Assembly (NCBI GenBank): GCA_019637685.1
Contig: JAHBVF010000016.1
Span: 62,001 to 126,000 of the forward strand
Length of the DNA: 64,000 bases
DNA from: Caldilineaceae bacterium
GTDB lineage: Bacteria; Chloroflexota; Anaerolineae; Caldilineales; Caldilineaceae
Direction: 5' to 3'
The position numbers and the translations under genes were made by a program. Position 1 is the first letter of the stretch; the number at the start of each line of letters is the position of its first letter. A model generated the notes under the pieces. It was given only the letters and a program-made list of their open reading frames with translations, ran no database searches and was not told the DNA's origin. Below, in pieces: positions 20,754 to 59,123 of this stretch.

Positions 20754-20781
20754 CTGATTTGGCCCTTTTTAGTATACGAAA

Positions 20782-21220
20782 TTATCCCCTGCTTATCCCC
20801 ACCTGGGGATAACTATCGGGATTGGGGATAGATGTGGGGATAAGTGGGTGCAAAAGTGGATAAATAAGCTGTTGATTTCCTGTTTACCAATTTTATCCCC
20901 GCTTTTGCCAGTTATCCCCAGGCAAAGTAGTACTTTGGAACTACCACTGTATCTAGCGTAGCCCATCCGTTCGACAGACGGCTGTCCGCTGCTTTCCACA
21001 AAGTATCCTGCGGAGTCTGCCCATTCCGTTGAGCAGATTCTCTTTTTGCCTACCCTATATGTGGGACACTACACGCGTGTCACCACCACATATATACGGC
21101 CAACAGGTGATTCTGCGGGTATGTGTTTACTTATCCCCATATCCCCAGCCCCTACTAAAACTATTAAAATTAAAAGATATTTCTATTGAAAGATATCAGG
21201 ATTAAACGAAAAGATACAGC
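20782..21220. other. Candidate chromosomal replication origin: DnaA-box cluster plus AT-rich repeats
   Basis: This gene-free 470-base gap holds repeated TTATCCCCA-type 9-mers, one change from the classic TTATCCACA DnaA box. Exact TTATCCCCA is at 20793-20801, 20912-20920 and 21131-21139, and on the other strand at 20804-20812 and 20835-20843. Near matches are at 20782 (…CCCCT), 20823 (reverse, CTATCCCCA), 20855 (reverse, TTATCCACT), 20893 (…CCCCG) and 21139 (ATATCCCCA). An AT-rich stretch from about 21149 follows, with AAAGATA at 21173, 21189 and 21210, like an unwinding element. dnaA, dnaN and recF are not adjacent, so the assignment needs GC-skew support. Confidence 0.65.
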
Positions 21221-21225
21221 CAGTC

Positions 21226-21750
21226 TCAAAAGCGTTGGCGATCGGGCAATAGAATATCGAGAGGGTTGAAGAAAGGCAATGGATTCGTAAAACCTCCCCA
21301 CCCGTCCAATCGATTGTAGGGATAGGTGCGAATGGCAAAATGTAAGTGGGGTCCGCTGCTGCTGCCTGTATTGTTGGAAAAACCGATCAATCCGCCCCGT
21401 GGCACAGTCTGGCCCGCGTCAACGGCGAAGCCTTGCAGATGTGCGTAGAGCGATTCCCCCCACCAGTGCTGTAACTTGATAAAGAGGCCATAGCCCGTCG
21501 GGTCATTGGCAATTTCAATGACCCGTGCCTTGTCAGTCGCCAACAGCCGGGTGTGCTCGGGCATGCCAAAATCCAGCCCATTGTGACCGGACAGGGGTCT
21601 GCCGCCCATCTGAAACCGTTGATAGTAGCCAGGATTCTCGCCCCACAGTTGGGTAATCCGACGGCGACCCTCGAAGGGGGCAGAGAGAAAGATACCCTCT
21701 GGTTCATAATGGCCCCTTTCAATAGGTTTGTTGAGAAAGTCGAACGACAC
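21226..21750 (-). CDS. M23-family peptidase domain protein without signal peptide
   Basis: A 174-residue LytM/M23 metallopeptidase domain. Zinc ligands are visible as HNGLDFG (His and Asp) and the HLHF pair in GSSSGPHLHFAIRT, so the site looks intact. Such enzymes cut peptidoglycan cross-bridges. I chose the GTG at 21750 because CAGGAGAAG lies eight bases upstream; longer readings from 21879 or 22053 overlap the FmdB gene or have no ribosome site. The chosen form has no signal peptide or membrane segment, which is odd for a cell-wall enzyme; a leaderless export route or a non-classical role is possible. It ends at the AT-rich edge of the candidate origin. Confidence 0.8.
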   Translation of the reverse strand: MSFDFLNKPIERGHYEPEGIFLSAPFEGRRRITQLWGENPGYYQRFQMGGRPLSGHNGLDFGMPEHTRLLATDKARVIEIANDPTGYGLFIKLQHWWGESLYAHLQGFAVDAGQTVPRGGLIGFSNNTGSSSGPHLHFAIRTYPYNRLDGWGGFTNPLPFFNPLDILLPDRQRF

Positions 21751-21915
21751 AGGACGCTTCTCCTGAGATGCGGTGATAAGGACAGTCGGTACTCTCCCAA
21801 TTCGACAGAGACGATCAAATTCAGTATACTCTGTTAGTTGACGTTCGCCCACTTGTGGGCGTTGCCACTTTGCAAACATACGATTTGAGATAAGCACTAC
21901 GCAGGAGAGTACCTT

Positions 21916-52902: not shown

Positions 52903-54960
<2,058 letters not shown>

Positions 54961-55422: not shown

Positions 55423-56700
55423 CTACAGATAGTCCCGCAGGCGGCGGCTACGGCTGGGGTGGCGCAGTCGGCTGAGGGCTTGGGCCTCGATCTGCCGGAT
55501 ACGCTCCCGCGTCACGCCGAACTTTTTGCCCACCTCTTCCAGCGTGTAGCAATAGCCATCGACCAGCCCAAAACGCAACTGGAGAATACGTACTTCCCGG
55601 GGAGTCAGGCTGGCGAAGATTTCATCGATCACTTCGCGCAGCAACTGCTGGCCCGCCGATTCCTGGGGGCTGTCCGCGTCTTCGTCCTCGATGAAATCGC
55701 CCAGATAGCTGTCTTCTTCCTCACCCACCGGCATTTCCAAACTCAGAGGGCGCTGGCTGACCCGCATAATGTGCTCCACTTTGCGCGGGGTCACGCCCAA
55801 CTCTTCAGCGATCTCCTCCGTCGTCGGGTCACGCCCCAATTCCTGCACAAGCTGGCGGCTGGTGCGGGTCAATCGGTTGATCTGTTCGTACATGTGTACG
55901 GGCACACGGATGGTGCGGCCCTGGTCTGCTATGGCACGGGTCACGGCCTGGCGAATCCACCAGGTGGCATAGGTGCTGAATTTGAAGCCCCGGCGATAGT
56001 CGAACTTCTTCACAGCCCGAATCAGGCCGATATTGCCTTCCTGAATCAGGTCCAGAAACGGTACGCCCCGCCCCACATATTTTTTGGCGACACTCACCAC
56101 CAGCCGGCTATTGGCTTTGATCAGATGTTCGGTGGCCGACTGGCCATCCCGCACAAGCCAGAGCATCTTTTCCCGCTCTTCCCAATCTTCCATTCCATCG
56201 GCCAGCGTTTGGCGAGAATCCCGGCCCGCCTCCATGCGTTTGGCCAGGTCAATCTCTTCTTCTGCTGTGAGCAGCGGGACGCGGCCGATCTCTTTCAGAT
56301 AGAGGCTGATAGAATCGTCGATTTCGATCTGACTCAGGTCAAAATCGTCTTCTTCCGCCTTGTCCCCGTTGTCTTTGATCTCCGGAATGGCGTCTTCTTT
56401 GGACTGTCCCACAGCAATGCCCTGCTCGAAAAGCGTGGCAAAAATGTCTTCCAATTGCTCTATATTGTTCTCGACTTCAGGCATAAGTTTGAGGACGTCG
56501 TCATAGCTGACGAATCCTTTGGAACGTCCCACCTTCAACAGATAGTCCATTGTCTCCTGTGGACTGCGGACAACTGTCTCCTCGGACTCTTCACCTTCGG
56601 CTTCGGGCATGTCCATCTCCTCGGCGTTCGGCTCATTTTGTTCCATTTCCATTTCGTCGATCTCTTCTTCTTCCGATGCAAATCGTGTTTTCTCTGCCAC
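55423..56700 (-). CDS. rpoD: Primary RNA polymerase sigma factor RpoD
   Basis: Housekeeping sigma factor of 425 residues. Region 1.1-like acidic N-terminus (residues 1-110) is followed by region 1.2 ([28 protein letters not shown]), region 2 with the -10 recognition helix ([29 protein letters not shown]), region 3 and region 4 with [23 protein letters not shown], which reads the -35. The start is the GTG at 56700, with AGAGGGGG seven bases upstream; the TTG at 56733 lacks a site. The near-consensus promoters at 8064 and 50144 are fitting targets. Confidence 0.97.
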
Positions 56701-56847
56701 CGGCACACCCCCTCTTGTCGGGCGATCGGCCAAGGCTGTAAAAAGGCGTCCACGGACACCCAGACCAGACCAGTCGCTAAAGATAGTAACTGTTTATTCT
56801 ACGATGATTTTGTTACAAGTCGGGTAATTAACTTCACAATTCGATTT

Positions 56848-57777
56848 TTATACTGCTTCCTTCATATCCCAGATTTTGTCCTGTCGGGCATACCGACGGC
56901 TGCACGAAGTACAGATCACCTGATCTGCGCCACTCCACTGCAATGGATGGGCGCTACAGTGCGGACAGCGCAGAAGCGCGGGTACGTCGGCTGGTTTTGT
57001 AGAATCGGCCTGAGCCGCTCGGCTGATTGGTATGGCCGCCTGAACAAAGACACTGGGCGCAATGGGAAAACGTCCAGCCAGAGACAAGAAGGGTTTCTCA
57101 ATCCCGACTAATCGGTCGGCGGGAACGCGGCTTTTTAGCATAGGCAGGCGAAAGTGTGACACGCCAAACTGCCGTTCAATCCGCAGGCCACTCTTGACAA
57201 TCCGCTCTGTCATCCAGTCCGGATGAAAATCGTAGTTAAGTTTGACAAATTCCACCGGTTTCGGCGAAAAGGGCGACCATTTCTGGCGGCCAGCCAGCCA
57301 GCGGACAATTGCCTTCAGGTTGCGTTTGTTGGCATATTCCAGCACAGCAACACTTTTTCCGTGCAGTGTCCGACTTAACTGGCCCAGCGCGTCAGGTACA
57401 TCCGCCAGATGATGCATCACCCGCACCATCACCAGTGTGTCCAGCACCCCATCGGCCAGGGGCAGATCGTAGATGTTCCCAGCCACAAACACAAAGCGGG
57501 GGTCGTCTCCCCAATGGGCAACTGCCTCTTGCAGCAATGTTCTGCTATAATCAAAGAGAATGATCTGCTCATAGCCTAGGTAGAGATCGGCCAGTCGCCC
57601 GAATCCGGCCCCGATTTCGGCAATGCGGCGGCCTGCGGTGGGCAGAAGTTGGGCGAGGGCGGCCCGCTCTACAGCATCTTCGTATTCCCGGCCCTGGCCC
57701 ACCCAGAAATCTGTGCGATAACCGCTGCCTTCGTAGTCGATGACGGGTGTTGCGTCGCTTACTGTCAAGTCACTCAA
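56848..57777 (-). CDS. SAM methyltransferase with C-terminal zinc ribbon
   Basis: A 309-residue protein. Residues about 40-180 form a class I methyltransferase: IAEIGAGFGRLADLYL (motif I), FDYSRTLL, VAGNIYDLPLADGVLDTLVMVRVMHHL (post-I). After residue 265 it has a Trm112-like zinc ribbon, LLRCPHCSAHPLQWSGADQVICTSCSRRYA, with four cysteines. The order methyltransferase then ribbon on one chain is less usual. The start is the TTG at 57777 after CAGGATAGAGCCAT. The substrate is unknown. The gene diverges from parS and the thiolase gene. Confidence 0.85.
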   Translation of the reverse strand: MSDLTVSDATPVIDYEGSGYRTDFWVGQGREYEDAVERAALAQLLPTAGRRIAEIGAGFGRLADLYLGYEQIILFDYSRTLLQEAVAHWGDDPRFVFVAGNIYDLPLADGVLDTLVMVRVMHHLADVPDALGQLSRTLHGKSVAVLEYANKRNLKAIVRWLAGRQKWSPFSPKPVEFVKLNYDFHPDWMTERIVKSGLRIERQFGVSHFRLPMLKSRVPADRLVGIEKPFLSLAGRFPIAPSVFVQAAIPISRAAQADSTKPADVPALLRCPHCSAHPLQWSGADQVICTSCSRRYARQDKIWDMKEAV

Positions 57778-57817: not shown

Positions 57818-57833
57818 TGTTTCACGTGAAACA
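57818..57833. other. Perfect 16-bp parS site (ParB binding)
   Basis: TGTTTCACGTGAAACA is an exact 16-bp palindrome that matches the near-universal bacterial parS consensus, where ParB-CTP loads and spreads for chromosome segregation. It lies in the intergenic region between the minus-strand methyltransferase gene and the plus-strand thiolase gene. parA and parB are not in the window. parS sites cluster near the chromosome origin in most bacteria, in line with the DnaA-box cluster 37 kb away. Confidence 0.93.
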
Positions 57834-57986
57834 TTTGTGTCTGCCAACTGGTGGGTCTTCCCATTAAAAAATGCGAGAGAATTAACTTCTCCGCGCATTT
57901 AGGCTAGTATAGCACGCTCCTAAACCGATTTCAATACCCAATTTGCGCTTTTTTGCACGAATGATCAATGAATTTGGGAGGTTTGT

Positions 57987-59123
57987 ATGCGAGAGGCAGT
58001 GATTGTCGAAGCCGTGCGCACGCCCGCGGGCAAATTTCGTGGTTCTCTCAGTTCCATCGAGCCGATCAATCTGGCCGCGCTGGTTCTGCAAGAAGTGTTG
58101 AACCGGGCGGGGATCGACCCGGCAGAGGTGGACGATGTGATGATGGGCTGTGTCACCCAGACCGGCGAGCAAGGAGCTAATATCGGCCGTCTGGCTACGC
58201 TTTACGCTGGCTTCCCTGTCGAAGTGGCCGCAGTCAGCATCAACCGGATGTGCGGCTCCAGCCAGCAGGCCATCCACTTTGCTGGACAGGCCATCGCCGC
58301 CAGTGATGCCGATGTGGTCATCGCTGCCGGTGTGGAATCCATGAGCCGGGTAGCAATGGGGTCCGACTATCCGCCCCAATTTCCCGACAATCCACCCTAT
58401 CCCTTGCTCCATCAGGGCGAATCGGCTGAATTGATTTGCCAAAAATGGGGCTTCAGCCGTGAAGCACTGGACGAATACAGCTACAATAGCCACATTAAGG
58501 CGGCCGCGGCCACAAAGGCCGGGCATTTCCAGCGGGAGATACTGCCTGTTGATGTCCGCCACAACGGAGCCAGCCGTGTGCTGGACATCGATGAGGGCAT
58601 CCGTTTCGAGCCGGACAGGGGAAAGATGTCCGCTCTGCGTCCTGCTTTTCGGGAGAATGGGGTAATCACCGCGGGCAATGCCAGCCAGATCAGCGACGGC
58701 GCGGCCGCAGTCCTGCTTATGGAACGCGGCCGCGCCGAGGCGCTGGGATTGAAGCCCCGCGCCCGCTTTGTCAGCCGTGTAGCCGTGGGCAGCGACCCGG
58801 AACTGATGCTTACTGGCCCGATTGCGGCCACAAGAAAGGCGTTAAAGCGGGCGGGGATGTCCATTGACCAGATGGATGTGATCGAAATCAACGAGGCATT
58901 TGCGCCGGTGGTGCTGGCCTGGGCCGCAGAGATCGAGCCGCCCCTGGCGCGGGTCAACCCCAATGGGGGCGCAATTGCCCTGGGCCATCCGCTGGGCGCG
59001 ACCGGGGCCAAATTGATGACAACGCTGCTCCACGAACTGGAACGAACGGGCGGGCGCTACGGTTTGCAGACGATGTGCATTGGCCACGGCCAGGCCACAG
59101 CGACAATTATCGAGCGATTGTAA
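57987..59123 (+). CDS. Acetyl-CoA acetyltransferase (thiolase)
   Basis: A 378-residue thiolase. The nucleophile is Cys89 (NRMCGSSQQA). The C-terminal motifs are NEAFAPV, GHPLGATGA (catalytic His) and MCIGHGQATA, which carries the second catalytic cysteine. It either condenses two acetyl-CoA or cleaves 3-ketoacyl-CoA in beta-oxidation. The start at 57987 follows GGGAGGTTTGT. The gene is monocistronic as seen; a PHA or fatty-acid role could link it to the PhaR-like protein at 37935, but this is conjecture. Confidence 0.93.
   Translation: MREAVIVEAVRTPAGKFRGSLSSIEPINLAALVLQEVLNRAGIDPAEVDDVMMGCVTQTGEQGANIGRLATLYAGFPVEVAAVSINRMCGSSQQAIHFAGQAIAASDADVVIAAGVESMSRVAMGSDYPPQFPDNPPYPLLHQGESAELICQKWGFSREALDEYSYNSHIKAAAATKAGHFQREILPVDVRHNGASRVLDIDEGIRFEPDRGKMSALRPAFRENGVITAGNASQISDGAAAVLLMERGRAEALGLKPRARFVSRVAVGSDPELMLTGPIAATRKALKRAGMSIDQMDVIEINEAFAPVVLAWAAEIEPPLARVNPNGGAIALGHPLGATGAKLMTTLLHELERTGGRYGLQTMCIGHGQATATIIERL

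What the first reader, a model, noticed from the sequence alone, without database searches (positions are those of the whole stretch)
57818..57833. Exact parS site
TGTTTCACGTGAAACA is a full match to the bacterial parS consensus and a perfect palindrome. A random exact match in 64 kb is very unlikely. Together with gyrB and the DnaA-box cluster it marks an origin-proximal region.
Basis: partly seen in the sequence, partly recalled or inferred. Interest (0 to 1): 0.7.

Follow-up and report, generated by a model that had tools for sequence, protein, structure and literature searches.

The report
Lone parS centromere near replication origin
The 16-letter palindrome is a genuine chromosome-segregation site (parS), the only one found in this Chloroflexota (Litorilinea-like) genome; it sits about 37 kb from a probable replication origin and has stayed beside the same methyltransferase gene across much of its class, while the genes for the proteins that use it lie far away.

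Summary
Confirmed. TGTTTCACGTGAAACA is exact and palindromic at 57818-57833. It is the only credible parS in the 6.32-Mb genome: the one 2-mismatch hit equals the control level. The genome encodes a canonical parA-parB pair on another contig, and ParB keeps the parS-contacting and parS-type specificity residues (R173, G201). The window is from a Litorilinea-like Caldilineaceae (Chloroflexota). Of 61 genomes (own plus 60 relatives), 47 carry 1-3 sites at 0-1 mismatch. In 60 of 80 homologous loci the site lies within 300 bp upstream of the same class-I methyltransferase gene, with random flanks. A dense DnaA-box cluster (window 20782-21139) is a probable oriC, 37 kb away; in two Anaerolineales such a cluster lies just downstream of dnaA and about 8 kb from parS. 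So this is an ordinary ParABS centromere: a single site in the ori region. The unusual points are its attachment to one gene for a whole class, and that parAB lies 1.2-2.7 Mb from parS in the four closed genomes checked. One open conflict: in closed Caldilineaceae the GC skew around the DnaA-box cluster has the reverse of the usual sign.

The parts
57818..57833 (.). parS, exact 16-bp palindrome TGTTTCACGTGAAACA; only copy found in the genome
   Evidence: conserved 16-mer with random flanks in 75 sites at homologous loci (columns inside the site are conserved partly by selection at 0-1 mismatch)
56848..57777 (-). class-I SAM methyltransferase gene; start codon 41 bp from parS; the gene that parS stays beside across the class
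   Evidence: 60 of 80 homologous loci have a 0-1-mismatch parS within 300 bp upstream
57906..57934 (-). sigma-70-like promoter (TTGAAA-17-TATACT) pointing at the methyltransferase; would place parS in its 5' untranslated region (consensus match only)
55423..56733 (-). rpoD sigma factor, next to the methyltransferase; some relatives have parS on its far side as well or instead
52954..54960 (+). gyrB, part of the conserved gyrB-rpoD-methyltransferase-parS neighbourhood in the family
57987..59123 (+). thiolase gene, divergent neighbour; shared by the genus and a few family members only
20782..21139 (.). probable oriC: 8 TTATCCCC/TTATCCAC boxes followed by an AT-rich stretch, in intergenic region 20754-21225
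   Evidence: cluster beside the same M23 gene in relatives; the only tandem box pairs in closed relatives G033 and G061
21226..21765 (-). M23 peptidase gene flanking the probable oriC, used as a syntenic anchor

Best explanation
The site is the chromosome's parS centromere. ParB, encoded on another contig, loads at this one palindrome as a CTP-dependent clamp and spreads over neighbouring DNA. ParA then separates the duplicated complexes, and with them the replication origin that lies about 37 kb away. Shown here: the site, its single copy, its conservation at one locus across the class, a canonical parA-parB pair with parS-type contact residues, and a nearby DnaA-box cluster. Inferred from known ParABS systems: ParB binding, spreading, ParA-driven movement and any SMC loading.
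For: Exact palindromic consensus, single copy. Canonical ParB: ParB_N, HTH_ParB and ParB_C domains, GERRWRA motif and best PDB match a chromosome-partitioning ParB of 6t1f, read here as Caulobacter ParB; R173, G201 and the contacts Q162, G170, K171, S172, N178 and R204 are kept when mapped on the alignment (residue roles from PMC7383237). 47 of 61 genomes have 1-3 sites at 0-1 mismatch; 60 of 80 methyltransferase loci have one within 300 bp upstream, expected about 0.0003 by chance; flanks are random. Origin side: 8 DnaA boxes in 450 bp against at most 2 in shuffles; dnaA plus box cluster about 8 kb from parS in two Anaerolineales; 7 of 9 rRNA operons point away from the oriC or parS reference; in closed G046 the GC-skew minimum is about 0.1 Mb from parS.
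Against: No binding or localisation data. parAB is not near parS or the inferred origin: 2.46, 2.69, 1.72 and 1.20 Mb from parS in four closed genomes. In closed Caldilineaceae G033, G061 and G062 the GC skew has the wrong sign for an origin at the DnaA-box cluster. In the same genomes parS is 0.24-0.49 Mb from that cluster. Four genomes of one related genus (g16) have ParB but no 0-1-mismatch site.
Confidence: 0.93

Rival explanations
1. The palindrome is mainly an operator for the adjacent methyltransferase or thiolase, bound by a transcription factor (or by ParB acting as a regulator).
For: It lies 41 bp before the methyltransferase start, downstream of a promoter-like match on the same strand, and is usually within about 5-220 bp of that gene's start in relatives.
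Against: Spacing varies widely; in L190, L199, L194 and L208 the site is 2.3-3.4 kb downstream of the methyltransferase start, near the far end of rpoD, and some genomes have both positions. The divergent neighbour gene changes. The sequence is the universal parS consensus and the genome has a matching ParB.
Confidence: 0.05
2. The locus is a real parS but lies in the terminus half, the true origin being at the GC-skew minimum near parAB.
For: In closed G033 and G061 the cumulative skew minimum lies near parB and the maximum near the DnaA-box cluster.
Against: DnaA-box clusters are on the parS side and are the only tandem box pairs in G033 and G061. In two Anaerolineales dnaA, a box cluster and parS are neighbours. 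Closed G046 has a conventional skew minimum near parS. rRNA orientation favours the oriC/parS side.
Confidence: 0.08
3. Chance occurrence without function.
For: None found.
Against: Expected 1.5e-5 in the window; present at the same locus in 60 of 80 homologous loci where about 0.0003 is expected.
Confidence: 0.005

Closest known systems
Chromosomal ParABS (Spo0J/Soj-parS) of Bacillus, Caulobacter and Pseudomonas
   Same: Identical 16-bp parS consensus, canonical ParB domains and parS-contacting residues, chromosomal-type ParA, parS in the ori region
   Different: One site instead of several; [quoted passage not shown]
Single-parS chromosomes such as Xanthomonas campestris (PMC7333895)
   Same: One centromere site per chromosome
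   Different: Here the one (sometimes two or three clustered) site stays beside one methyltransferase gene across a class; whether anything similar holds in Xanthomonas was not checked
Noc-NBS nucleoid occlusion system
   Same: Homologous protein; this ParB also scores against the Noc model (233 bits, below its 315 cut-off)
   Different: ParB has R173 and G201 (parS type), not Q173 and R201 (PMC7383237); the site is parS, not NBS, and is single, not scattered

Membership tests
Chromosomal ParABS | 16-bp palindromic parS matching TGTTNCACGTGAAACA | tested here: met
Chromosomal ParABS | ParB with ParB_N, HTH and C-terminal dimerisation domains and GERRxRA motif | tested here: met
Chromosomal ParABS | parS-type specificity residues R173 and G201 (Caulobacter numbering) | tested here: met
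   alignment, mapped by eye; residue roles from PMC7383237
Chromosomal ParABS | ParA ATPase encoded next to parB, without an N-terminal DNA-binding domain | tested here: met
   the nucleotide-binding domain begins at residue 4
Chromosomal ParABS | parS in the origin region | tested here: met
   37 kb from the DnaA-box cluster in the window; 4.8-8% of the chromosome away in three closed relatives; caveat of reversed skew sign
[quoted passage not shown]
   parB is 72-97% of the way to the opposite pole in four closed relatives; on another contig in the own genome. Described as a conserved feature, not a strict requirement
Chromosomal ParABS | ParB binds parS and ParA moves the complex | not testable with these tools
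   needs an experiment
Noc-NBS | Q173/R201 specificity residues and scattered NBS sites | tested here: not met
   residues; Noc model below cut-off; NBS sites themselves were not searched

The most novel reading that the evidence does not exclude
In Caldilineaceae the origin lies at the DnaA-box cluster and parS locus, the par operon sits near the terminus, and the leading strand is C-rich, so the GC skew is inverted. That would break two usual rules of bacterial chromosome layout at once.
Probability: 0.5. Interest if true: 0.5.

Novelty: new member of a known kind. Interest (0 to 1): 0.3.

Why it matters
It marks the centromere, and with the DnaA-box cluster the probable replication origin, of a poorly studied group. 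A class with one conserved centromere position and a distant parAB operon could help test why parS sites stay where they are and whether parAB must lie near the origin.

Tried and rejected
GC skew as the origin test: uninformative in the own draft contig and of reversed sign in three closed family members. A generic dif pattern to locate the terminus gave no match in the four closed genomes. Gene-strand bias over sampled stretches showed no replichore signal in G033. The 2-mismatch site on C14 was rejected as noise. A simple operator reading was rejected because the position relative to the methyltransferase varies. The comparative survey by Livny et al. 2007 is not held, so prior reports for Chloroflexota could not be checked there; literature searches found none.

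Full report
Observation. TGTTTCACGTGAAACA lies at 57818-57833, exact and palindromic. It is the only match in the window at up to 3 mismatches. In the 6.32-Mb genome it is the only site at 0-1 mismatch, and the single 2-mismatch extra is within the reversed-pattern control count.

Identity of the genome. Homologous loci with high identity come from Litorilinea and Caldilineaceae MAGs (Chloroflexota). The own genome has 70 contigs; the window is contig 8, 62001-126000.

Partners. A parA-parB pair is on contig 1. ParB has ParB_N, HTH_ParB and ParB_C domains and aligns with chromosomal ParB proteins of known structure. Mapping the contact residues described in PMC7383237 onto the alignment with the first of these (6t1f, which I take to be Caulobacter ParB), I read Q162, G170, K171, S172, R173, N178, G201 and R204 as conserved: a parS-type, not Noc-type, protein. 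The mapping is mine, done by eye. dnaA is on contig 15.

Conservation. 47 of 61 genomes (own plus 60 relatives) carry 1-3 sites at 0-1 mismatch. Phylum-wide, 116 of 301 sampled genomes have the exact word, from 1 to 22 copies, and the reversed control has none. Across 80 loci encoding the same methyltransferase (down to about 40% identity), 60 have a 0-1-mismatch site within 300 bp upstream, against about 0.0003 expected. In 75 sites the flanks are random; conservation inside the site is partly due to selecting at 0-1 mismatch, but in six genus loci the 16-mer is unchanged while the near flanks differ. The position is not rigid: some genomes have the site near the far end of rpoD, or at both places. 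This speaks for a centromere rather than an operator.

Origin. The window holds 8 DnaA-type boxes within 450 bp from 20782, where shuffles reach at most 2, followed by an AT-rich stretch. Clusters lie beside the same M23 gene in many relatives. In G025, G027 and G019 an M23 homologue and parS share a contig 12-33 kb apart, though in G025 no boxes were seen beside it. In closed G033 and G061 the only tandem box pairs are at one place. In two Anaerolineales loci a box cluster follows dnaA directly, about 8 kb from parS. In G044 dnaA is 2.7 kb from parS.

Layout in closed genomes. oriC-like cluster to parS: 0.34 Mb in G033, 0.49 Mb in G061, 0.24 Mb in G062. parB to cluster: 2.61, 2.77 and 1.96 Mb, that is 97, 93 and 77% of half the chromosome; in G046, measured from parS, 1.20 Mb or 72%. 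[quoted passage not shown] These genomes are related, so the four values are not independent.

Conflict. In G033, G061 and G062 the arm to the right of the box cluster has the more negative GC skew, the reverse of the usual sign, and the cumulative minimum falls towards the opposite pole, near parB in G033 and G061. In G046 the sign is usual and the minimum is about 0.1 Mb from parS. rRNA operons: 7 of 9 point away from the oriC or parS reference; five of seven in the four closed genomes, and one each on the oriC contigs of G063 and G064, both to the left of the box cluster on the minus strand. I favour an origin at the box cluster, at about 0.9, and leave the skew unexplained.

Mechanism. Inferred from known ParABS systems: ParB loads at parS, spreads as a CTP clamp, and ParA separates the copies, moving the nearby origin. 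Nothing here shows binding.

Verdict. A genuine, ordinary parS; single copy; attached to one gene across a class; with a distant parAB operon.

Noticed in passing
closed relatives G033 (OY282376.1), G061 (OX638330.1) and G062 (OY282381.1): GC skew on the two sides of the DnaA-box cluster has the reverse of the usual sign; in G033 the sharp minus-to-plus flip near 2.73 Mb lies almost exactly opposite the cluster.
   Followed up: partly
relatives G021, G026, G029, G032 (genus g16): ParB is present but scores lower (about 154-158 bits) and no 0-1-mismatch parS is found, so the site sequence may have changed there.
   Followed up: no
own contig C15:10977-11145; the same in several relatives: Two or three TTATCCCC boxes upstream of dnaA, perhaps for autoregulation or a remnant origin.
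   Followed up: no
window 57869-57900: Inverted repeat in the methyltransferase-thiolase intergenic region that folds into a hairpin (z = -1.6); the adjoining CCATTAAAAAATGC is kept in the genus.
   Followed up: partly
phylum search, genera g76 and others: Some Chloroflexota outside this class carry 5-22 exact parS copies, in contrast to the single copy here.
   Followed up: no
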